Assembly (NCBI GenBank): GCA_016794525.1
Contig: JAEUJY010000028.1
Span: 1 to 59,031, forward strand
Direction of reading: 5' to 3'
Origin: Myxococcales bacterium
GTDB lineage: Bacteria; Myxococcota_A; Polyangia; Haliangiales; Haliangiaceae
DNA: 59,031 bases
The number at the start of each line of letters is the position of its first letter. Position 1 is the stretch's first letter. The notes under the pieces are model-generated. The model saw nothing but the letters and a program-made list of their open reading frames with translations. It was not told the origin of the DNA and did not search any database. Positions 12,144 through 48,958 of the stretch are shown here, piece after piece. The translations under genes and the position numbers were made by a program.

Positions 12144-13360
12144 GCGCCCGCCGCGGCGCAGCGGTGGCGGCCCACCGGTGGCGGATCGCGGGGCTGGCGC
12201 TCGCGGTCGCGGGCGCGCTGGCGGCGCCGGCGGGGGCCCAGCCCGGGCCCGACGCCGGGGTCGATCTCGACGGCGGCGTCGCGGTCGGCGGCGCGCCCAG
12301 CGACGGCGGGGTCACCGGCGACGCGGGGCCGACCCGGATCGTCATCGACGGGCCGACGCTGCTCGGCATCGGCAAGCCGCAGGTGTCGGCGTCGGCGTCG
12401 CCGACCGAGATGCGCCTCGGCGACAAGTTCACGCTGTTCGTCGACGTGGTGTTCGACGAGAACGTCACGGTGTCGGTGCCGTCCGGGCTCGATCTCGCGC
12501 CGTCGTTCGACGAGCTCAAGCGCACGTCGGTCGAGGAGCGCCGCTCCGACGGCACCCGCAAGCGCACCTACCAGATCCAGCTGCAGGCGTGGGAGCTGGG
12601 CGACGTGCGGTTGCCGCCGGTGCAGGTGACCTACTCGGTCGGCGGCGACAGCTCGTGGGTGGTCACCAACGAGGTGCCGCTGCGGATCGTCGGCTCGATC
12701 GACTCGATCGACGATCCCAACGCGTTCCTCGGCGCGACCCCGCCGGTGCCGCTGCGCCGGCGCAACTGGCTGTGGCTGAGCCTGGCGATCGGCGTCGCGG
12801 TGATGGCGGTGGTCGGCGGCGCCACCTGGCTGTGGTCGCGGCGCCGCCGCAAGGCGCGGGCCGCGGCGCGCCCGGTCGAGGCGACCAGCGACGGCCTCGA
12901 GCCGCTGGTGGTGCTGGCCGCCCCGGCGACGGTGGCCGCGGCGCCGCCGGCGATGAAGGTCGCGCCCAAGGCGCCGGCCCGCCGCGCGGCGTGGATCGAC
13001 CTGAGCCGGCTGACCGACGCCGCGCGCAAGGCGCTGGCCGCGCTCGACGAGCTCGAGCGCGCCGGCACGCTGGTCGACGATCAGGTCGCGGGCTACCGGG
13101 TGATGGCCGGCATCGTCCGCACCTACCTGCTCGAGGAGTTCGCGCTGCCGAGCCGGCACCGCACCACCCGCGAGCTGATCAAGGCGCTGGGCGCGACCCC
13201 GATCGCGCCGAGCGGCCTGACCGAGGCCGAGCGCTGGCTGGGCGCCGCCGACCTGGTGAAGTTCGCGGCGGCGGTCGACCCCGAGCAGGGCGCGATCGCG
13301 CTGGCCGACGCCCGCGCGCTGATCACCGCGATCGCCGGCGCGCGCGGAGGTGCGCGGTGA
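12140..13360 (+). CDS. BatD-like single-pass membrane protein
   Basis: A 406-residue membrane protein in the position of BatD. A signal-type N-terminus (residues about 13-34, ending PAGAQ) is followed by an Asp/Gly-rich linker. A beta-sandwich extracytoplasmic domain (about 55-195; VSASASPTEMRLGDKFTLFVDV) comes next. One transmembrane helix lies at about 212-236 (WLWLSLAIGVAVMAVVGG), followed by a basic RRRRK stop-transfer. The Ala-rich cytoplasmic C-terminus has a helical domain (about 290-400). It overlaps the DUF58 stop by 4 nt and is overlapped by the next GTG. Assignment rests on layout and operon position; sequence-level BatD similarity is weak to my eye. Confidence 0.78.
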   Translation: MSARRGAAVAAHRWRIAGLALAVAGALAAPAGAQPGPDAGVDLDGGVAVGGAPSDGGVTGDAGPTRIVIDGPTLLGIGKPQVSASASPTEMRLGDKFTLFVDVVFDENVTVSVPSGLDLAPSFDELKRTSVEERRSDGTRKRTYQIQLQAWELGDVRLPPVQVTYSVGGDSSWVVTNEVPLRIVGSIDSIDDPNAFLGATPPVPLRRRNWLWLSLAIGVAVMAVVGGATWLWSRRRRKARAAARPVEATSDGLEPLVVLAAPATVAAAPPAMKVAPKAPARRAAWIDLSRLTDAARKALAALDELERAGTLVDDQVAGYRVMAGIVRTYLLEEFALPSRHRTTRELIKALGATPIAPSGLTEAERWLGAADLVKFAAAVDPEQGAIALADARALITAIAGARGGAR

Positions 13361-14445
13361 ACCGCTGGCTGCGCGCGCTCTTGCCCTACGGCCTCTTGGT
13401 CGCGATCGGCGGGCCGCTGGCGCTGATCCTGCGCGACTACTACCGCGATCCCAGCCGCCACGCCGGCGCGCTGTCGTGGGCCCACCCGCAGGTCTGGGTG
13501 CTGAGCGCCGCCGGCCTCTTGCTGGCGTGGGTCGGCTTCCACCTCGGGCGATCGCGCGGCGCGACGATGGGCTTCTCGCGGGTCGGCGAGCTGAGCCGCG
13601 CCGGCGGCGGCGTCCGCAGCTACCTGACGACGCTGCCGACCGTGCTGCGGATCGTCGCGCTGGGCGCGGTGATCGTCGCGCTGGCGCGACCGCAGACCTA
13701 CCGGACGATCACCCGCGAGGTCGACTCGATCGACATCATGATCGTCCTCGACATGTCGAAGTCGATGGAGGAGACCGACATGGCCCGCGGCGATCCGCTG
13801 GTCCAGACCGACCGCCTCGACGCCGCGCAGCGGGTGATCCGCCGCTTCATCGCCGGCCGCCACGGCGACCGGGTCGGGCTGACGGTGTTCGCGCAGCAGA
13901 CGATGTTGCAGTGTCCGCTGACGCTGGACATGAAGATCCTCGATCAGGTCGTGGCCGACCTCGCGCTCGACGACATCCCGGCGATGGGCACGGCGATCGG
14001 CGACGGGCTCGGGCTGGGGCTGGCGTCGTTGCGGCGCAGCGACGCCAAGTCGAAGATCGTGATCCTCCTGTCCGACGGCGAGAACAACGTCTCGACCCAG
14101 ATGACCCCGCAGCAGGCGGCCGAGGTCGCGTTCGACGATCGGGTCAAGGTGTTCACGGTGCTGGTCGGCGCCGAGGACGGCCCCAAGCAGTTCGGCAACA
14201 CGGTCAACCCGGCGACGCTGCGCAACATCGCGCAGGTCACCGGCGGCATGTTCTTCAAGGCCACCGACTTCAAGGAGCTCGAGAACGGCTTCGAGACGGT
14301 CCGCAAGGAGCTCGACAAGACCCGCCGGGTCGAGAAGGAGCGCAAGAAGGACGCCGAGCTGTGGGTGCTGCCGCTGGCGATCGCGCTGGCGCTCCTGTGC
14401 CTCGACGCGCTCCTGGCCCGGACCTGGCTGCGGAGGTTCCCGTGA
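13357..14445 (+). CDS. VWA domain membrane protein, BatA-like
   Basis: A 362-residue inner-membrane protein of BatA/BatB type. It has hydrophobic helices near residues 7-26, 45-62 and 85-103. A VWA domain (about 115-300) carries the MIDAS motif DMSKS in IMIVLDMSKSMEETD, with later metal-site residues in GTAIGDGLG and LLSDGENN. A final transmembrane helix lies near 340-358. The GTG start at 13357 is preceded by GGAGGT at 5 nt and overlaps the previous stop (GTGA). It presumably works with MoxR and the DUF58 protein in envelope function or stress tolerance; this role is inferred from Bat operons. Confidence 0.92.
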   Translation: MNRWLRALLPYGLLVAIGGPLALILRDYYRDPSRHAGALSWAHPQVWVLSAAGLLLAWVGFHLGRSRGATMGFSRVGELSRAGGGVRSYLTTLPTVLRIVALGAVIVALARPQTYRTITREVDSIDIMIVLDMSKSMEETDMARGDPLVQTDRLDAAQRVIRRFIAGRHGDRVGLTVFAQQTMLQCPLTLDMKILDQVVADLALDDIPAMGTAIGDGLGLGLASLRRSDAKSKIVILLSDGENNVSTQMTPQQAAEVAFDDRVKVFTVLVGAEDGPKQFGNTVNPATLRNIAQVTGGMFFKATDFKELENGFETVRKELDKTRRVEKERKKDAELWVLPLAIALALLCLDALLARTWLRRFP

Positions 14446-15590
14446 CCTTCGCCTATCCCGACCTGCTCCCGGTGGCGGTGCTGGCGCCGCTGATCGTCGT
14501 CGCGCTCGCGGCGTGGGATCAGCTCCGCCGCCAGGCCGTGGTGCGCCAGCTCGGCCACGTGCCGCAGGTGCAGCGGATGCTGGCCTCGGCCTCGGCGTGG
14601 CGGCGCTGGACCAAGACCGCGCTGGTCGCGCTGGGGCTGTGCGCGATCGCGCTCGCCGCGGCGCGACCGCAGCGCGCCGGCAAGCACGACGGCAGCAAGC
14701 AGGGCCTGGACCTGGTGATCGGGCTCGACGTGTCGAAGTCGATGCTGGTCAGCGACGTCGACGGCACCCGCCTGGCCAAGGCCCGGGCCTTCATCGACGC
14801 GCTCCTGCCCAAGCTGGTCAACGATCGGGTCGGCGCGATGGTGTTCGCCGGCACCGCCGCGCACTTCCCGCTGACCGACGACAAGGAGGTCGGCGCGCAG
14901 TTCCTCCGCGACCTGGGCCCGGCCGACCTGCCGGGCGGCTCGAACCTCGACGAGGCGTTCCGCGTCGCGACCTGCGTGCTGCGCCCCGACACCAGCGACC
15001 CGTGGGGCGGGCGCTGCGCCGGCCTGCGCGGCCGCGGCCACGGCGGCGATCCGCTGCCGGGCGAGCCGGCCGACACGCCGGTGGCGGCGGCCACCGAGGA
15101 GATCAACGACCGCAGCAAGGTGTTCATGCTGATCACCGACGGCGCCGATCGCGACCGCGCCGGCGACGGCGTCAGCGCCGCGCTCGACCAGGCGGCGCAG
15201 GCCAAGCAGCTGGGCGTCACGCTGATCGTCGTCGGCGTCGGCACGCCGAGCGGCGGCAACGTGCCCGACATCGACGCCGAGGGCCGGCCCAGCGGCTGGA
15301 AGTACGACGCCCAGGGCAAGATCGTCCGCTCGGCGCTGGACCCGTCGTCGCTGCGCACGCTGGCCGAGGCCGGCGGTGACCCCAATCGCTACATCGAGCT
15401 GGGGCCGGGCCCGCCGCCGGTCGACGCGGTGGTGGTGGCGCTCGACGCGCTGACCCGCGGCTCGCTGTCGAAGCGCGACGAGCGGGTGATGGACGAGTGG
15501 TACGCCGCGTTCTTGTTCCCCGGGTTCATGCTGCTCTTGATCGAGGCCTGCCTGGGCACCCGCCGGCGGGTGCGGTTCCCCGAGGGCTAG
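14442..15590 (+). CDS. VWA domain membrane protein, BatB-like
   Basis: A 382-residue paralog of the preceding gene with the same topology: helices near 8-24 and 58-75, a VWA domain at about 90-310 with MIDAS DVSKS (LVIGLDVSKSM), then a C-terminal helix near 348-366. It carries a Cys- and Gly-rich insertion (about residues 180-215) with PDTSDPWGGRCAG that the first paralog lacks. The GTG start is preceded by GGAGGT at 4 nt and overlaps the BatA-like stop by 4 nt. Its TAG stop provides the first base of an inverted-repeat element. Confidence 0.92.
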   Translation: MTFAYPDLLPVAVLAPLIVVALAAWDQLRRQAVVRQLGHVPQVQRMLASASAWRRWTKTALVALGLCAIALAAARPQRAGKHDGSKQGLDLVIGLDVSKSMLVSDVDGTRLAKARAFIDALLPKLVNDRVGAMVFAGTAAHFPLTDDKEVGAQFLRDLGPADLPGGSNLDEAFRVATCVLRPDTSDPWGGRCAGLRGRGHGGDPLPGEPADTPVAAATEEINDRSKVFMLITDGADRDRAGDGVSAALDQAAQAKQLGVTLIVVGVGTPSGGNVPDIDAEGRPSGWKYDAQGKIVRSALDPSSLRTLAEAGGDPNRYIELGPGPPPVDAVVVALDALTRGSLSKRDERVMDEWYAAFLFPGFMLLLIEACLGTRRRVRFPEG

Positions 15591-15767
15591 GGCCCCCGCG
15601 TGACCACCCCGGTGGTGCTCGCGACCGATCCATCCCGGCTGGCGGCGTTGCCGGCTCCGGTCCTCAGGTCACGTCCAACGAGGACGCTCCCTTCCGGTCC
15701 TCGCCAGCGCCTTGCCATCCGGGCGCCTCGGCCGCGATCACCGCTCGACGTGGTCACGCGGGGGCCC
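15590..15767. mobile_element. 178-bp MITE-like element with 18-bp terminal inverted repeats
   Basis: GGGCCCCCGCGTGACCAC at 15590-15607 is the exact reverse complement of 15750-15767. The left repeat begins with the last base of the BatB-like stop codon, and the right one ends 44 bp before the ATG of the TPR gene. The interior has no gene; it contains GTCCTC/GAGGAC hairpin combinations and blocks similar to each other in inverted order. It could be a miniature inverted-repeat element or a large regulatory hairpin inside the operon. No target duplication is obvious. Confidence 0.6.
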
Positions 15768-43820: not shown

Positions 43821-44753
43821 ATGATCCGAACCTCTCGCCTCGCTCTCGCCGTCGCCGCCGTGGCGACGCTCGTGCTCGCCGCGTGCGACATGGGCCAGTT
43901 CACCGTCAACACCACGGCGAAGGTGCTCATCCGCGCCCAGCCGTCGATCAAGATGGAGTCCGACTACGAGCTCGCGGCGCGCGCCATCCCCGGCACGCTC
44001 AAGACCGTCGAGGGCTTCTGGGTGGTCGATCCCGGCAACCCGATCCTGCGCGGCATCCTCGCCGAGGGCTACTGCCAGTACGGCATCGGCTTCGTCGAGG
44101 ACGAGTGGGAGCGCGCGCTGATCGCCAACGACTACGACGCCGCGCAGGAGCTCGACAACCGCGCGACCCGGATGTTCGTGCGCTGCATGAACTACGCGCT
44201 GATGCAGCTCGGGAAGAAGTGGCAGGACGGCCTGTTCGGCGACACCGAGTCGGTGACCAAGCTGATCAACGGCGCGTCGGGCGGCCAGCGCACCCCGCTG
44301 ATGTGGGCGGCGATCGGGCTCGGCTCGATGATCAACCACAACAAGGACAACGTCGAGCTGGTGGCCCAGGCGCCGACCGCCAAGGCGATGCTGCTCAAGG
44401 TCGTCGAGATGGACGCCAAGCACCCGCCCAAGGACAAGGCGCTGGCGGCCCTGCCCCACGTCGCGCTGGGCCTGCTCTACACCGCGGCCGGCGCCCAGCT
44501 CGGCGGCGACGCCGCCAAGGCCGAGGAGCACTTCAAGAAGGCCCTGGCGCTCACCGACGAGAAGTTCCTGCTCGCCCGGGTGAATTACGCCAAGCGGGTC
44601 GGCGTCATGACCCAGAACCGCAAGCTGTTCCACGACGAACTGGTCAAGGTGCTGCAGACCGATCCGGCGATCTGGCCGGAGCAGCGCCTCGCCAACGAGA
44701 TCGCCCACCGGCGCGCCCGCCGGTACCTCAGCCAGGAAAAGGAGCTCTTCTGA
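43821..44753 (+). CDS. TRAP transporter TatT component family lipoprotein
   Basis: A 310-residue lipoprotein with lipobox LVLAAC followed by DMGQFTVNTTAKVL, a start typical of TatT-family proteins. TatT (first described in Treponema pallidum as Tp0956) is a trimeric helical TPR-like protein that binds the DctP-type subunit and is thought to assist ligand delivery. The mature part is all-helical (ESDYELAARAIPGTLKTVEGF; YCQYGIGFVEDEWERALIANDYD; LLYTAAGAQLGGDAAKAEEHFKKALALT). The stop TGA overlaps the dctP ATG (TGATG), fixing the partnership. Confidence 0.9.
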   Translation: MIRTSRLALAVAAVATLVLAACDMGQFTVNTTAKVLIRAQPSIKMESDYELAARAIPGTLKTVEGFWVVDPGNPILRGILAEGYCQYGIGFVEDEWERALIANDYDAAQELDNRATRMFVRCMNYALMQLGKKWQDGLFGDTESVTKLINGASGGQRTPLMWAAIGLGSMINHNKDNVELVAQAPTAKAMLLKVVEMDAKHPPKDKALAALPHVALGLLYTAAGAQLGGDAAKAEEHFKKALALTDEKFLLARVNYAKRVGVMTQNRKLFHDELVKVLQTDPAIWPEQRLANEIAHRRARRYLSQEKELF

Positions 44754-45775
44754 TGCGCACCCTTGTCAACCGTCTCACCCTCGCGACCGCCGTCGCGGCC
44801 TCCCTCGCGGCGATCGCCCCGGCGGCGGCCGACAACGTGGAGATCCGCCTCGCCACGCTGGCCCCGGATGGCAGCTCGTGGATGAAGATCCTCGGCAAGG
44901 GCGCCGCCGAGATCGACAAGAAGACCGAGGGCCGGGTCAAGGTCAAGTACTACGCCGGCGGCGTCCAGGGCGACGAGCGCGACGTGGTCCGCAAGATCAA
45001 CCTGGGCCAGCTCGACGGCGCCGCCGTGACCTCGGTCGGCCTGTCGATGGTCGAGGAGTCGATCCGCGTGCTCGAGCTGCCGCGCATGTTCGCGTCGGTC
45101 GAGGAGCTCGACTACGTCGCCGACAAGATGTGGCCGTACTTCGTCAAGAAGTTCGAGGCCAAGGGCTACAAGCTCGGCGATCGCGGCGACGTCGGCTGGA
45201 TCTACTTGCTGTCGAAGTCGGAGATCAAGAACGTCGGCAGCCTCAAGAGCTCGAAGGTGTGGATGTGGGGCGACGACGCGATCGTCCGCGCCATGTACAA
45301 GCGCCTCGGCATCTCGGGCGTGCCGCTCGGCGTGCCCGAGGTCGAGCCCAACCTGACCACCGGCCGCATCGACGCGTGCTACGGGTCGCCGTTGGCCGCC
45401 GTCGCGCTGCAGTGGAACACCAAGGTCAAGTACATGACCTCGCTGCCGATGAGCTACGGCATCGCCGCCACGGTCATCAAGCTCGACGCCTACAAGAAGG
45501 TGTCGGCCGAGGACCAGGCGCTGGTGCTCAAGATCTCCAAGGGCATGCAGAAGACGCTGCGCAAGCAGATCCGCAAGGACAACGAGAGCGCCAAGAAGCA
45601 GATGGAGCGCAAGGGCGTGAAGATCAGCGAGACCACCCCGGAGCTGCTCGCCGACTTCGACAAGGCGGCCAAGGACGTCTGGGCCGACCTGACCGGCAAG
45701 ATCTACACGAAGGACGAGCTCGCGATGGTGCTCAAGCACCGCGACGAGTACCGCGCCAAGCACCCGGCGCCGTGA
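44753..45775 (+). CDS. dctP: TRAP transporter solute receptor (DctP family)
   Basis: A 340-residue periplasmic substrate-binding subunit of a tripartite ATP-independent transporter. A signal peptide ends near APAAADN. Family features are IRLATLAPDGSSWMKILGKGAAEIDKKTEGRVKVKYYAGG, GDERDVVRKINLGQLDGAAVTSVGL and LKSSKVWMWGDDAI. The arginine-containing TTGRIDACYGSPL may hold the ligand carboxylate site. GGAG lies 8 nt before the ATG, consistent with an internal operon gene. The membrane subunits are encoded about 600 bp further on, after a minus-strand gene. Ligand not predictable. Confidence 0.94.
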   Translation: MRTLVNRLTLATAVAASLAAIAPAAADNVEIRLATLAPDGSSWMKILGKGAAEIDKKTEGRVKVKYYAGGVQGDERDVVRKINLGQLDGAAVTSVGLSMVEESIRVLELPRMFASVEELDYVADKMWPYFVKKFEAKGYKLGDRGDVGWIYLLSKSEIKNVGSLKSSKVWMWGDDAIVRAMYKRLGISGVPLGVPEVEPNLTTGRIDACYGSPLAAVALQWNTKVKYMTSLPMSYGIAATVIKLDAYKKVSAEDQALVLKISKGMQKTLRKQIRKDNESAKKQMERKGVKISETTPELLADFDKAAKDVWADLTGKIYTKDELAMVLKHRDEYRAKHPAP

Positions 45776-45781
45776 CCCTGA

Positions 45782-45846
45782 GAGGGTCTTTCGTAAGACC
45801 CTCCCCCGGCATGCGCCGGGGCCCCCACCCGAAACGGCCCGGAGCG
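45782..45846. repeat. TCGN-loop double-hairpin element, copy f
   Basis: Hairpin 1: GAGGGTCTT (45782-45790) with AAGACCCTC (45795-45803), loop TCGT. Hairpin 2: CCCCGGC (45804-45810) with GCCGGGG (45815-45821), loop ATGC. The 25-bp tail (45822-45846) is identical to that of copy e at 11163-11187. It starts 7 nt after the dctP stop, and a separate terminator follows at 45873. Confidence 0.82.
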
Positions 45847-45872
45847 TTCAGCGACGGTGCGCGTGAGGACCT

Positions 45873-45905
45873 GACGCCCCGCCTCGTGCGGGGCGTCGGC
45901 GTTTC
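45873..45905 (+). terminator. Intrinsic terminator after dctP
   Basis: GACGCCCCGC (45873-45882) pairs perfectly with GCGGGGCGTC (45888-45897), loop CTCGT, followed by GGCGTTTC. It shares the GACGCC stem base and GGYGTTT tail with the terminator at 4962-4996. Confidence 0.55.
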
Positions 45906-45960
45906 GGCGCGACGATCGCGCGGCGGCTACGCTCGGGCCGCTGGTGGTGGTGGCCTAGCT

Positions 45961-46080
45961 GGACCGCGCGAGGAAGCCCAGGGGCAAGGCGACGGTGGGG
46001 CCCCGAGGCCGAGCGTACTCCTGTACGTGAGGCGCTCGGGGGGGACCGGCAACGAAGCCCATGGGCTCCGCAGCCGGTCC
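45961..46080. other. Long (~120 nt) imperfect hairpin between convergent genes
   Basis: Nested complementary blocks fold the whole segment: GGACCG (45961-45966) with CGGTCC (46075-46080), AGCCCA (45975-45980) with TGGGCT (46062-46067), CGGT (45993-45996) with ACCG (46045-46048), and CCGAGC (46009-46014) with GCTCGG (46034-46039). The apex contains GTACTCCTGTAC. It starts 8 nt beyond the stop of the minus-strand zinc-ribbon gene and could be its 3' structure, a small RNA, or a palindromic mobile element. No T-run is adjacent. Confidence 0.6.
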
Positions 46081-46087
46081 GGTGGTG

Positions 46088-46264
46088 TTAGCGGCGACCC
46101 TTGTATCCCATCATGCCCTGGATGACGGCTTCGCTCGCCTCGGCGATCTCGGCGCCCTCGCGGGCGCGGTCGGCGCAGTCGGCGCACAGCTTGACGGCCT
46201 TGCCCGCGACCTTGACCGAGACCAGGCGATCGACTTCGTCCTTGCACTCGCGGCAGATCGGCAT
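46088..46264 (-). CDS. Small zinc-ribbon protein
   Basis: A 58-residue protein with two CxxC pairs: MPICRECKDEVDRL near the start and KLCADCADRAREG in the middle. This suggests a single treble-clef or zinc-ribbon knuckle. The C-terminus is helical and ends in basic GMMGYKGRR. It resembles short zinc-binding proteins found in Deltaproteobacteria, function unknown. TACGCT lies exactly 6 nt before the ATG at 46264, and no Shine-Dalgarno is present. It lies opposite in orientation inside the TRAP gene group, splitting dctP from dctQ. Confidence 0.8.
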   Translation of the reverse strand: MPICRECKDEVDRLVSVKVAGKAVKLCADCADRAREGAEIAEASEAVIQGMMGYKGRR

Positions 46265-46270
46265 GGGGGG

Positions 46271-46276
46271 AGCGTA
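46271..46276 (-). promoter_or_regulatory. -10-like TACGCT, 6 nt before zinc-ribbon ATG
   Basis: On the minus strand TACGCT, six C, then ATG at 46264. Leaderless spacing. Confidence 0.45.
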
Positions 46277-46377
46277 GCCGAGATGCCGCCTCCACTCGAG
46301 TCGCGAGGTGGCGCGTGGTGGCCGGCGGGACGAGCACTTGGTGGCGGCTTCGGTTGAGGCAGCTTCCGGATCCTGCG

Positions 46378-46383
46378 TAAGAT
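46378..46383 (+). promoter_or_regulatory. -10-like TAAGAT, 6 nt before dctQ GTG
   Basis: TAAGAT, GCCTGG, then GTG at 46390. It suggests dctQM has its own promoter, separate from tatT-dctP. Confidence 0.5.
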
Positions 46384-46389
46384 GCCTGG

Positions 46390-47082
46390 GTGAGCGCATC
46401 CGGTGATGACCCACCCGTCAAGCCATCGCCCGACCTGCCCGACCCCAAGGCCGACGGCGAGGTCCACCTCAAGACCGAACCACCCGCCGCGACGGGCATG
46501 GGCGTAGCCGTGGCCGCCGCGTTTCCCGAGCCCCACGTGGTCGACCACTTCGCCGACGAGCCGCCGCTGGCGCGGTCGGTGCGGCGCCTCGACGAGGCGG
46601 TCGGCGCGGGCGAGCGCGCGGGGCTGTTCGGCGCGTTCGCCGTGCTGGTCCTGGTCAGCTTGTACCGCACGTTCATCGACATGTTCGCCGGCGAGCGGCC
46701 GCTGTGGGCCATCGAGATCGTGCGCCTGTCGGCGTTCTCGATCGGCATGCTGGGCGCCGCCTACGCCACCCAGAGCCGGCGCAACTTCGGCCTCGACCTG
46801 GTCTCGGCGCTGTTCCCGACCAAGGTCAAGGCGATGGTGCGGGTGTTCACCAACCTCGCGGCGCTGGCCGCCGGCGCGCTCTTGTTCCACGGCGGCCGGC
46901 TGATCCAGCACGCGTTGACCAAGGAGAAGCAGCACTACGAGGTCATCCCGACCACGACCGTCGGCTGGCTGATCCCGGTGTGCGCGGTGCTGATCATGTT
47001 CCACGTCACCCTGCACATCGTCATCGAGATCGACTACCTGCGCCAGGGCAAGACCGCGCCCGAGCCGGAAGTGGCGGGCTGA
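46390..47082 (+). CDS. dctQ: TRAP transporter small permease (DctQ family)
   Basis: A 230-residue membrane subunit. It has an unusually long hydrophilic N-terminus (about 75 residues, Pro/Asp/Glu-rich) before the DctQ core of four helices: LFGAFAVLVLVSLYRTFIDMF, AIEIVRLSAFSIGMLGAAYAT, VFTNLAALAAGALLFHGG and VGWLIPVCAVLIMFHVTLHIVIEIDYLRQG. The conserved loop SRRNFGLDLVSALFP between helices 2 and 3 is typical of TRAP small subunits. The GTG start is supported by TAAGAT at 6 nt. The stop is one nucleotide before the dctM ATG. Confidence 0.88.
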   Translation: MSASGDDPPVKPSPDLPDPKADGEVHLKTEPPAATGMGVAVAAAFPEPHVVDHFADEPPLARSVRRLDEAVGAGERAGLFGAFAVLVLVSLYRTFIDMFAGERPLWAIEIVRLSAFSIGMLGAAYATQSRRNFGLDLVSALFPTKVKAMVRVFTNLAALAAGALLFHGGRLIQHALTKEKQHYEVIPTTTVGWLIPVCAVLIMFHVTLHIVIEIDYLRQGKTAPEPEVAG

Positions 47083-47083
47083 C

Positions 47084-48958
47084 ATGCTGACGCTCCTGAT
47101 CATCCTGCTGGTGCTGGCGTTCGTCGCCGGCTCCCCGCTGTTCGCGGTGATGTTGTTCCTGACCGCGATCGGCGCCGAGACCGGCACCAAGGGCTTCGAG
47201 AAGGACTTCGGCGGCTTCGCCTACGAGTTCTTCAGCCTCGGCACCGGCGACAAGTCGACGATCTTCTCGAGCATCCCGCTGTTCATCTACGCCGGCTACG
47301 TGATGGCCGCGTCGAAGACCGCCGAGCGGCTGGTGCGCTTCGCCAACGCCGCGCTCGGCTGGGTGCCGGGCGGCCTCGGCATCGTGACGATCCTCGCGTG
47401 CTCGGTGTACACGACGTTCACCGGCGCGTCGGGCGTCACGATCGTCGCGCTCGGCGGCCTGCTGATGCCGGCGCTGATCAAGCAGCGGTACCCCGAGCGG
47501 TTCGCGCTCGGCCTGGTGACCGGCACCGGCTCGGTCGGCCTGTTGTTCCCGCCGGCGCTGCCGATCATCCTGTTCGGCACGATCTACGGCTTGCAGCGCA
47601 TCCAGCCCAAGCCCGAGAACTGGCAGTGGGAGTGGGCCACCGAGCGCTTCTACTTCGCCGGCATTATCCCCGGCGCGCTGCTGATCCTGATGCTGTCGGT
47701 GCTGGTGGTCGCGATCGCGATCATCAAGAAGGTGCCGCGGCAGAAGTTCGAGTGGGGCGAGCTGTTCGCGTCGCTGCCGGGCGCGCTGCCGGTCATCTTC
47801 CTGCCGATCCTGATCTTGCTCGGCCTGGCCAAGGGCGTCGGCGACATCTCGCAGATCGCGTCGCTGACGGTGCTCTACCTGATCATCGTCGAGATGGGCA
47901 TCTTCCGCGACCTCAAGCCCCAGGCGCTGTGGGCCATCACCAAGGAGTCGATGGCGCTGATCGGCGCGATCTTCATCATCATCTACTCGGCGACCGCGCT
48001 GACCAACTACCTGGTGACCGCCGACGTCCCGGGCAAGCTGGTGCACTGGACCCGCGACCACATCGACTCGCGGTGGGCGTTCCTGCTGGCGCTCAACGGC
48101 CTGTTGCTCCTGACCGGCATGGTCATGGACATCTTCTCGGCGATCCTGATCGTCGTGCCGCTGATCGCCCCGGTGGCGCACGAGTACGACGTCAGCCCGT
48201 ACCACCTCGGCGTGATCTTCCTGCTCAACCTGGAGATCGGGTACCTGCACCCCCCGATCGGCCTCAACCTCTTCATCTCCAGCTTCAAGTTTCGAAAACC
48301 GTTGCTGGAGGTCACGGTCGCGACGTTGCCGTTCATGTTCACCGTCATGGCGGCGCTGTTGATCGTGACCTACGTCCCGAGCCTGACCGTCGTGCCGCCG
48401 CCGAAGCCCACCGGGACCCTCGACGGCCTGGTCGCCGTGGTGAAGTCCAGCGCGCAGGCGGTGATCAACGTCAGCGAGGTCACGCTGCCCGACGGCAAGG
48501 TCAAGAAGCAGGACGAGTGCAAGGGCATCGAGGACGAGTTCGAGCGCGAGAACTGCCTGGGCCTGTTCACCGACGTCACCAACTGCCGCAAGAAGGCGCC
48601 CGACGAGGCCAAGGCGTGCGAGGAGAAGGCGATCTCCGAGTGGGTCGAGGCCAACGGCGGCGGCGTCGACGACGGCGGTGACTTCGAGGACGAGGACACC
48701 GAGGACGAGGACACCGAGGACACCGACACCGAGGACACCGACACCGACGACACCGCGCCGGCCGCCGACGATGGCGACGCCGGCGTGGGCGCCGGGAGCG
48801 GCGCGGGCTCGGCCGCGGGCACCGGATCTGGTTCGGGCCCCGCCGCGGGCTCGGGCTCCGGTTCGGGCTCGGCCGCGGGATCCGCCGCGGGATCGGGCGC
48901 GCCGCCTGCCGCCGGCTCGGCGCCCGCCGCCGGCTCGGCCGCGCCGGTCGCGCCGTAG
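47084..48958 (+). CDS. dctM: TRAP transporter large permease (DctM) with long C-terminal extension
   Basis: A 624-residue membrane transporter. Residues about 1-440 are a DctM-type large permease with about 12 helices and TRAP motifs such as IPLFIYAGYVMAASKTAERLV, FTGASGVTIVALGGLLMPAL, GTGSVGLLFPPALPIILFG and NLEIGYLHPPIGLNLFISS. Residues about 440-624 are extra: a Cys-containing domain (KKQDECKGIEDEFERENCLGLF...NCRKKAPDEAKACEEKAI), then an acidic Glu/Asp/Thr repeat, then Gly/Ser/Ala repeats. Four cysteines suggest a compact extracytoplasmic knot. Normal DctM proteins end near residue 430-440, so the tail is unusual. It pairs with dctQ and probably tatT-dctP. Confidence 0.92.
   Translation: MLTLLIILLVLAFVAGSPLFAVMLFLTAIGAETGTKGFEKDFGGFAYEFFSLGTGDKSTIFSSIPLFIYAGYVMAASKTAERLVRFANAALGWVPGGLGIVTILACSVYTTFTGASGVTIVALGGLLMPALIKQRYPERFALGLVTGTGSVGLLFPPALPIILFGTIYGLQRIQPKPENWQWEWATERFYFAGIIPGALLILMLSVLVVAIAIIKKVPRQKFEWGELFASLPGALPVIFLPILILLGLAKGVGDISQIASLTVLYLIIVEMGIFRDLKPQALWAITKESMALIGAIFIIIYSATALTNYLVTADVPGKLVHWTRDHIDSRWAFLLALNGLLLLTGMVMDIFSAILIVVPLIAPVAHEYDVSPYHLGVIFLLNLEIGYLHPPIGLNLFISSFKFRKPLLEVTVATLPFMFTVMAALLIVTYVPSLTVVPPPKPTGTLDGLVAVVKSSAQAVINVSEVTLPDGKVKKQDECKGIEDEFERENCLGLFTDVTNCRKKAPDEAKACEEKAISEWVEANGGGVDDGGDFEDEDTEDEDTEDTDTEDTDTDDTAPAADDGDAGVGAGSGAGSAAGTGSGSGPAAGSGSGSGSAAGSAAGSGAPPAAGSAPAAGSAAPVAP

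What the first reader, a model, noticed from the sequence alone, without database searches (positions are those of the whole stretch)
45961..46080. 120-nt long imperfect hairpin downstream of a small zinc-ribbon gene
Several nested complementary blocks pair across the entire segment, with a GTACTCCTGTAC apex. It lies between convergent genes and does not encode a plausible protein. I have an unverified impression that similar GTAC-apex palindromes recur in other proteobacterial genomes. It could be a structured RNA or a palindromic mobile element.
Basis: partly seen in the sequence, partly recalled or inferred. Interest (0 to 1): 0.5.

Follow-up and report, generated by a model that had tools for sequence, protein, structure and literature searches.

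The report
ERIC-like mobile hairpin after stop codons
The hairpin is one of about twenty scattered copies of a small non-coding DNA element that mostly sits directly behind genes in one direction, and it appears to be a distant relative of the ERIC repeats of gut bacteria, with further relatives in very different bacterial groups.

Summary
The 120-nt hairpin is real (z -4.9) and not unique. It is one of about 20 dispersed copies in its own genome (Kofleriaceae, Myxococcota); three others are 95-97% identical to it, and it recurs in related genomes. Its arms covary (22 of 34 pairs change on both sides; no shuffle reaches the observed score) with almost no G-U, and internal loops are conserved. 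Rfam has no match. A profile trained on copies from its own family, then widened with loci found by an apex pattern, finds relatives in Planctomycetota, Bacteroidota, Verrucomicrobiota, Bacillota, Desulfobacterota and Proteobacteria. The widened profile picks out an E. coli ERIC element (30.9 bits; next best 9.3) although ERIC was not in its training set. In 36 of 42 main-type copies a stop codon lies within 26 nt of one end (5 of 42 have one near the other end). The rule holds for 48 of 59 copies from four other lineages, but not for ERIC. Fifteen homologous loci of the adjacent zinc-ribbon gene lack the element. In Listeria goaensis 5 of 7 copies are flanked by a duplicate of the host gene's terminator hairpin. 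Best reading: a non-autonomous mobile palindrome of an ERIC-containing superfamily. Its effect on mRNA and its mobiliser are unknown.

The parts
45952..46080 (+). element body: 129-nt imperfect palindrome, model match (orientation defined by GAGCGTAC..GTACGTGAGG)
   Evidence: R1 134.7 bits E 2.4e-25; R2 109 bits. The copy is in the training set of both models.
45943..46085 (+). stretch shared with the nearest copies (96-97% over 143 nt)
46015..46026 (+). apex GTACTCCTGTAC (4-bp stem, 4-nt loop)
   Evidence: pairs 66-71/77-82
45968..45974 (+). conserved internal-loop strand GCGAGGA (partner CCGCAGC at 46068-46074)
   Evidence: invariant columns of A1
46068..46074 (+). conserved internal-loop strand CCGCAGC
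   Evidence: invariant or nearly invariant columns of A1
45984..45991 (+). conserved internal-loop strand GCAAGGCG (the first A of the two is G in some copies; partner CAACG at 46050-46054)
46050..46054 (+). conserved internal-loop strand CAACG
46027..46032 (+). GTGAGG, 3' side of the subapical GA-rich internal loop
   Evidence: pattern
46088..46264 (-). host gene, 58-aa CxxC..CxxC protein; stop codon 7 nt from the element
44753..45775 (+). convergent neighbour, DctP (PF03480); stop 176 nt from the element
15621..15744 (-). second copy in the window, of another subfamily (62.4 bits)
15590..15607 (+). left arm of an 18-bp perfect outer stem around the second copy; its first base is the last base of the TAG stop of the + strand ORF 13350-15590
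   Evidence: read
15750..15767 (+). right arm of that outer stem
   Evidence: read

Best explanation
The hairpin is a copy of a non-coding, non-autonomous mobile palindrome (MITE-like). It belongs to a superfamily of about 110-135-nt palindromes with a shared architecture (short helices separated by conserved purine-rich internal loops, apex GGAGC-stem-N4-stem-GTGA) that also contains ERIC. In this lineage the main type settles just behind stop codons in one orientation, so a read-through transcript of the host gene would carry the reverse-complement hairpin at the start of its 3' UTR. SHOWN: dispersed copies, covarying structure, cross-phylum relatives with a profile link to ERIC, orientation and spacing of the main type, absence at homologous gene loci, and terminator duplication in Listeria. 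INFERRED: movement by an enzyme acting in trans; folding as single-stranded or cruciform DNA during movement (the arms are kept almost strictly Watson-Crick, unlike tRNA stems of the same genome); and an effect on 3' end formation or stability of the zinc-ribbon mRNA.
For: Copies: 15 further places (14 copies) at E<1e-7 in the own genome; 21 matches with R1 at E<=0.001; 9 of 55 relatives by blastn. Structure: 98.4% of 881 cells paired, covariation 0.397 against 0.109 shuffled and at most 0.059 when slid. Superfamily: R1 finds beta-proteobacterial, Desulfobacter, Bacteroidales, Devosia and Bacillus loci; A2 covariation 0.629 against 0.145; R2 finds an E. coli ERIC at 30.9 bits, next best 9.3. 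Position: stop within 30 nt of the right end in 36 of 42, of the left end in 5 of 42; 48 of 59 against 9 of 59 in four other lineages. Mobility: none of 15 other zinc-ribbon loci holds a match; 5 of 7 Listeria copies are flanked by a direct repeat of the gene's terminator hairpin, control 0 of 42, and 19 homologous Listeria loci lack the element. Arms: 1 G-U of 855 cells against 31 of 697 in tRNA stems.
Against: No mobilising gene was sought or found, and no precise empty site was obtained in Kofleriaceae. Flanking direct repeats of score >=12 occur in only 1 of 48 copies there and in 0 of 52 in Scalindua, Bacteroidales and Desulfospira. ERIC-sized hits show no orientation or stop-codon rule (6 against 6 of 20), and R1 alone did not reach ERIC at E<=1. 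Enterobacterial GTAC-type loci score mostly little or no more with R1 than the apex alone. Four of the six second-subfamily copies examined in the own genome lie between or overlap 5' gene ends. A2 was aligned by R1 and leans towards its structure.
Confidence: 0.75

Rival explanations
1. A cis-acting 3' UTR RNA (terminator, 3'-end protector or RNase site) kept by selection at particular genes; repeats arise because many genes use the same device.
For: Tight spacing to stop codons and preferred orientation; strong covariation. Papers report stem-loops concentrated at 3' ends of genes, and ERIC at 3' ends changing mRNA levels in Yersinia (PMC1590033, PMC10969869; passages seen).
Against: None of 15 other zinc-ribbon loci in related genomes has it. 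Three copies beside genes of other lengths are 95-97% identical to it. I see no T tract at the window copy. G-U is nearly absent, unlike tRNA stems.
Confidence: 0.3
2. A REP/BIME or REPIN-type element moved by a REP-associated tyrosine transposase.
For: Dispersed palindromes; pairs in opposite orientation.
Against: Body is 129 nt, not 20-40 bp; by eye the conserved ends do not bear the GTAG/CGTC tags (PMC3733652: title and abstract start seen in a search listing only). No transposase was searched for.
Confidence: 0.05
3. A structured trans-acting ncRNA (ribozyme, guide RNA, retron-like RNA) present in many copies.
For: Conserved GA-rich internal loops and covariation.
Against: No Rfam family at gathering for the window and no credible one at relaxed thresholds for the window copy and nine further loci; none over the element in 17 loci of other taxa. 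The strand with purine-rich loops is antisense to the nearest host gene in most main-type copies. Strict Watson-Crick arms.
Confidence: 0.1

Closest known systems
ERIC / IRU / RU-1 (enterobacterial repetitive intergenic consensus)
   Same: Imperfect palindrome of about 130 nt; same order of motifs by eye (AAGGCG, GGAGC-stem-N4-stem-GTGA, CAACGC-like 3' loop); dispersed, intergenic; R2 finds one at 30.9 bits.
   Different: ERIC is reported from Enterobacteriaceae and Vibrionaceae (PMC10969869, passages seen). ERIC-sized hits here show no orientation rule; the apical stem sequence and base differ; R1 does not reach ERIC.
Other short intergenic mobile repeats (YPAL/RU-2, RU-3, NEMIS, RUP, CIR)
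   Same: Non-coding, short, dispersed, long stem-loops (PMC2229807, part 1 of 3 seen).
   Different: The RU-2 and RU-3 sequences printed in PMC2759123 (passages seen) do not show the motifs of this family, by eye.
Group IIC introns and other terminator-seeking elements (recalled)
   Same: Insertion next to terminator hairpins in one orientation resembles the Listeria copies.
   Different: The element is too short to encode an intron protein; terminator duplication is not an intron signature (recalled).
REP/BIME
   Same: Extragenic palindromes, often at 3' gene ends (recalled).
   Different: Much shorter, different conserved tags.

Membership tests
ERIC | single long imperfect palindrome of about 127 bp | tested here: met
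   129 nt, one long hairpin
ERIC | recognisable ERIC sequence (consensus similarity) | tested here: inconclusive
   superfamily profile R2 links them (30.9 bits); R1 alone does not at E<=1
ERIC | occurs in Enterobacteriaceae/Vibrionaceae | tested here: not met
   same-genus genome G006 matches the record titled Kofleriaceae in contig length and element coordinates
ERIC | TA target duplication | tested here: inconclusive
   TA beside the ends in many Scalindua copies, by eye; not resolvable for the window copy
ERIC | intergenic | tested here: met
   no overlap with a called gene in 41 of 42 main-type copies; G000:C54 overlaps a weak call
MITE | short, non-coding, multiple dispersed copies | tested here: met
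MITE | terminal inverted repeats and target-site duplication | tested here: inconclusive
   inverted repeat is the body itself; duplication of 22-25 bp in 5 of 7 Listeria copies and one 24-nt case among 48 Kofleriaceae copies
MITE | mobilised by a related full-length transposon | not tested
   no transposase search made
Rfam structured RNAs | match to any of 4227 families | tested here: not met
   (only chance-level matches below gathering scores)
REP/RAYT | 20-40 bp palindrome with GTAG/CGTC-type tag | tested here: not met
   129 nt; no such tag at the conserved ends, by eye
REP/RAYT | RAYT transposase in genome | not tested
   -

The most novel reading that the evidence does not exclude
ERIC is one enterobacterial branch of an ancient, cross-phylum superfamily of palindromic mobile elements. 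Outside enterobacteria these elements home to the stop codon or terminator of genes in one orientation, carry conserved internal-loop 'keys' read as folded single-stranded DNA, keep their arms identical by arm-to-arm copying, and in some hosts duplicate the gene's terminator on insertion: a previously unrecognised class of 3'-end-targeting element with an unknown mobilising machine.
Probability: 0.4. Interest if true: 0.8.

Novelty: new variant of a known kind. Interest (0 to 1): 0.62.

Why it matters
ERIC has been known since about 1990, is widely used for strain typing, and I know of no identified mobiliser. Relatives in many phyla, some with over 100 model matches per genome and a sharp target rule, give comparative material to find the mobilising enzyme and the role of the conserved loops. 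A palindrome that lands behind stop codons in one direction could also change the 3' ends of many mRNAs at once.

Tried and rejected
Unique terminator of the zinc-ribbon gene: rejected, because the copies are dispersed and 15 other zinc-ribbon loci lack it. Known RNA family: no match that stands (the sub-threshold microRNA hits look spurious). Phage- or plasmid-borne element: no apex match in viral contigs, no blastn match in plasmids or phages. Integron attC: considered from recall only and dropped, since copies are dispersed, not clustered. Flanking repeats of score 12 or more: absent in Scalindua (0 of 20), Bacteroidales (0 of 19) and Desulfospira (0 of 13), and found in 1 of 48 Kofleriaceae copies (swapped control 8 of 2256). 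Basal-loop motifs GCGAG (15 of 61, shuffles up to 17) and GCAG (33 of 61, shuffles up to 33) are not enriched in the other taxa. The G-U against A-C count on A2 (102 against 23), which would favour folding of the GGAGCG strand, was not relied on, because that alignment was fitted to R1; the count anchored only on GAGC and GTGA gives 1 against 0 of about 430 pairs, but it admits only stems with at least 3 of 4 Watson-Crick pairs. Paper searches for an earlier description of non-enterobacterial ERIC relatives found none (only CC-licensed PMC papers are held). Regex attempts failed for most or all loci and were replaced.

Dropped before counts: one search uses 42 main-type copies from eight genomes (41 of the 75 located, plus the window copy). 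Left out were 26 G025 and 2 G024 hits (gene caller not trained for them), five second-subfamily hits of G000 and one G002 hit (count by genome). Two of those left out (C113:146401, 59.8 bits; C4:18015, 52.8 bits) score above the weakest copy kept (49.5). Two more G000 matches (C128:7591, C113:123067) were not examined. One search left out L277 (contig end) and used the best-listed hits only: 20 of 150 Scalindua, 19 of 95 Bacteroidales, 7 of 14 Listeria, 13 of 33 Desulfospira. One search collapsed 117 apex places to 72 and counted the 61 that I did not label Myxococcota; for loci whose title was not shown the label was by sequence likeness. For one search I gave 51 of the 116 loci, and L244. 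One search took 20 of the weaker 130-135-nt hits. One search used the 30 best of 61 tRNA matches. One search matched 23 of 25 Listeria genomes; 20 loci were held and three matches not looked at.

Full report
OBSERVATION. The given strand of 45961-46080 folds to -76.1 kcal/mol (z -4.87, 0 of 200 shuffles as stable) and the other strand to -69.5 (z -4.10, 1 of 200). The apex GTACTCCTGTAC is at 46015-46026. The element ends 7 nt from the stop codon of a 58-aa CxxC..CxxC gene on the minus strand (46088-46264) and 176 nt from the stop of dctP.

IT IS A REPEAT. In the window's own 9.8-Mb genome the stretch has 15 further places at E<1e-7, that is 14 copies, since two places are the halves of one copy with an insert near the apex (72-97% identity). 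A covariance model (R1, from 26 copies of seven genomes of the same family) finds 21 matches there at E<=0.001. By blastn 10 of 56 genomes, the own one included, have a match; by R1 11 of 30 genomes of the family, own included; by the later model R2 19 of 140 genomes of the phylum, own included. The same-genus genome G006 appears to be the assembly of the record titled Kofleriaceae bacterium (contig of 127,843 bases and the same element coordinates), so I place the window in Kofleriaceae, Myxococcota.

STRUCTURE. On the MAFFT alignment of 26 copies, 22 of 34 pairs have two-sided changes. 98.4% of 881 cells pair (83.2% shuffled), and the covariation score is 0.397 against 0.109 (sd 0.010) shuffled and 0.059 at most when partners are slid. 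Three internal loops are conserved on both sides of the stem: GCGAGGA/CCGCAGC, GCAAGGCG/CAACG and GGAGCG/GTGAGG. No Rfam family matches. The arms are nearly strict reverse complements: 1 G-U among 855 cells (leaving out one near-invariant G-U pair) against 31 of 697 in tRNA stems of the same genome (Fisher p 2e-10; cells are not independent). In the apical stem, G-U is 1 and A-C is 0 of about 430 pairs in three groups of genomes, among stems with at least 3 of 4 Watson-Crick pairs. I infer that both strands matter, or that one arm is copied onto the other; RNA folding alone would tolerate G-U.

RELATIVES IN OTHER PHYLA. They include Enterobacterales, Aeromonas, Pseudomonas, Burkholderiales, Devosia, Desulfobacterota, Scalindua, Bacteroidales, Verrucomicrobia, Bacillus and Listeria. 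There were none in viral contigs. The sequence outside the apex is related too, in part of these. R1 gives 61 bits to a beta-proteobacterial locus and 35-57 bits to loci of Burkholderiales, Desulfobacter, Bacteroidales, Devosia, Bacillus and Scalindua, where the apex alone scores about 16-18; most enterobacterial loci stay near the apex-only score. In 61 non-redundant loci that I did not label Myxococcota, flanks are enriched in AAGGCG (13 against 2.3 in shuffles) and CAACG (19 against 5.3) and fold far better than shuffled flanks (median z -5.4); GCGAG and GCAG are not enriched beyond the shuffles. On 78 copies aligned by R1 the covariation score is 0.629 against 0.145, though that alignment leans to the model. 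R2 built from it gives, at E<=0.01, 150 matches in a Scalindua genome (every scored candidate), 142 in a 1.3-Mb Verrucomicrobia genome, 95 in a Bacteroidales genome, 33 in Desulfospira, 14 in Listeria goaensis and 16 in the Kofleriaceae record; copies of these organisms or their close relatives were in its training set.

ERIC. I noticed by eye that ERIC, recalled from memory, has the same order of motifs. The recalled stretch matches 5373 of 5426 E. coli genomes, and one locus was fetched. R2, trained without ERIC (but with four enterobacterial GTAC-type copies), finds ERIC there at 30.9 bits (E 1.5e-6), with the next best match at 9.3 bits. R1 alone did not find it at E<=1. E. coli genomes also carry places similar to a GTAC-type element, median 5 per genome.

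POSITION RULE. For 42 main-type copies in eight genomes (selection told under Tried and rejected), the right end faces a gene's 3' end in 40 of 42, with the stop codon within 30 nt in 36 of 42 (-1 to 26 nt). The left end has a stop within 30 nt in 5 of 42 (binomial p 4e-8 on discordant copies). The host gene is then antisense to the GGAGCG strand, and its mRNA would carry the reverse complement. The rule also holds for the best-listed copies of Scalindua (12 of 20), Bacteroidales (19 of 19), Listeria (6 of 7) and Desulfospira (11 of 13), against 1, 4, 1 and 3 on the other side, counting ORFs of 90 codons or more. Among 120 apex matches, stops of ORFs of at least 100 codons lying 50-100 nt before the apex number 54 against 22. 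It is weak for the best hits in four gammaproteobacterial genomes (17 against 11 of 30) and absent for 130-135-nt hits, 15 of 20 of which have an ERIC-type apex by a simple pattern (6 against 6 of 20). The second subfamily of the own genome mostly breaks it: of six copies examined, four lie between or overlap 5' gene ends. The second copy in this window (15621-15744) obeys it and sits inside an 18-bp perfect outer stem that begins at the stop codon of an ORF.

MOBILITY. The zinc-ribbon gene has matches in 15 other genomes. In the 13 that I read, the protein keeps its C-terminus (one lacks the last residue) and the element is not seen after the stop. R2 finds no match within any of the 15 loci, only in the window's own. 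In Listeria goaensis one host gene was compared with 19 homologous Listeria loci: none holds the element, and by eye they have a terminator-like hairpin after the gene, whereas L. goaensis has terminator, element, and the terminator again. Of 7 copies, 5 are flanked by a direct repeat of score 18-23 (22-25 nt) and a sixth by one of 10, against 0 of 42 swapped controls at 12 or more. This is not seen in Scalindua, Bacteroidales or Desulfospira. In Kofleriaceae only 1 of 48 copies shows it, a 24-nt repeat spanning the stop codon. In several Bacteroidales copies the outermost stem pairs with the last codons of the host ORF (read).

INTERPRETATION. The data fit a non-autonomous mobile palindrome that is recognised by its folded loops and often lands at gene 3' ends. 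A review says ERIC at 3' ends of Yersinia genes changes transcript levels through an RNase E site (PMC10969869, passages seen), so an effect on the zinc-ribbon mRNA is plausible but not shown. What moves it is unknown. The same review names Enterobacteriaceae and Vibrionaceae as the ERIC hosts, and I found no earlier report of wider relatives in the held papers (searches named under Tried and rejected).

Noticed in passing
window 15590-15767: Second element copy (15621-15744, minus strand, 62.4 bits) inside an 18-bp perfect outer stem starting at the stop codon of the + strand ORF 13350-15590.
   Followed up: partly
window 43821-48958: TRAP transporter cluster (TAtT, DctP, DctQ, DctM by Pfam) has the minus-strand zinc-ribbon gene and the element set between dctP and dctQ.
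   Followed up: no
G000 contig C7, about 40.2-48.0 kb: Dense array of more than 20 tRNA matches on one contig, perhaps a mobile element or phage tRNA island.
   Followed up: no
G000:C41:451-798 (L005), G009:C334, G003:C158, several G025 contigs: The opposite-strand element pairs under 500 nt apart that I saw (11) are all minus then plus, 5' ends facing; for two of them (C41, C334) the flanking genes are convergent. G025:C132 instead has copies in tandem.
   Followed up: partly
G000:C91:67349-67396 (L016/L081): A 48-nt short form with only the basal stem and GCCCATGGGC, as if the apical part had been deleted.
   Followed up: no
G064 (Verrucomicrobia, 1.3 Mb): 142 model matches in a 1.3-Mb genome, the highest density among the 11 genomes.
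   Followed up: no
L265-L284 (Bacteroidales): Outer stems vary from copy to copy and in some pair with the host ORF's last codons, suggesting capture of a native terminator or inverted copying of the gene end.
   Followed up: no
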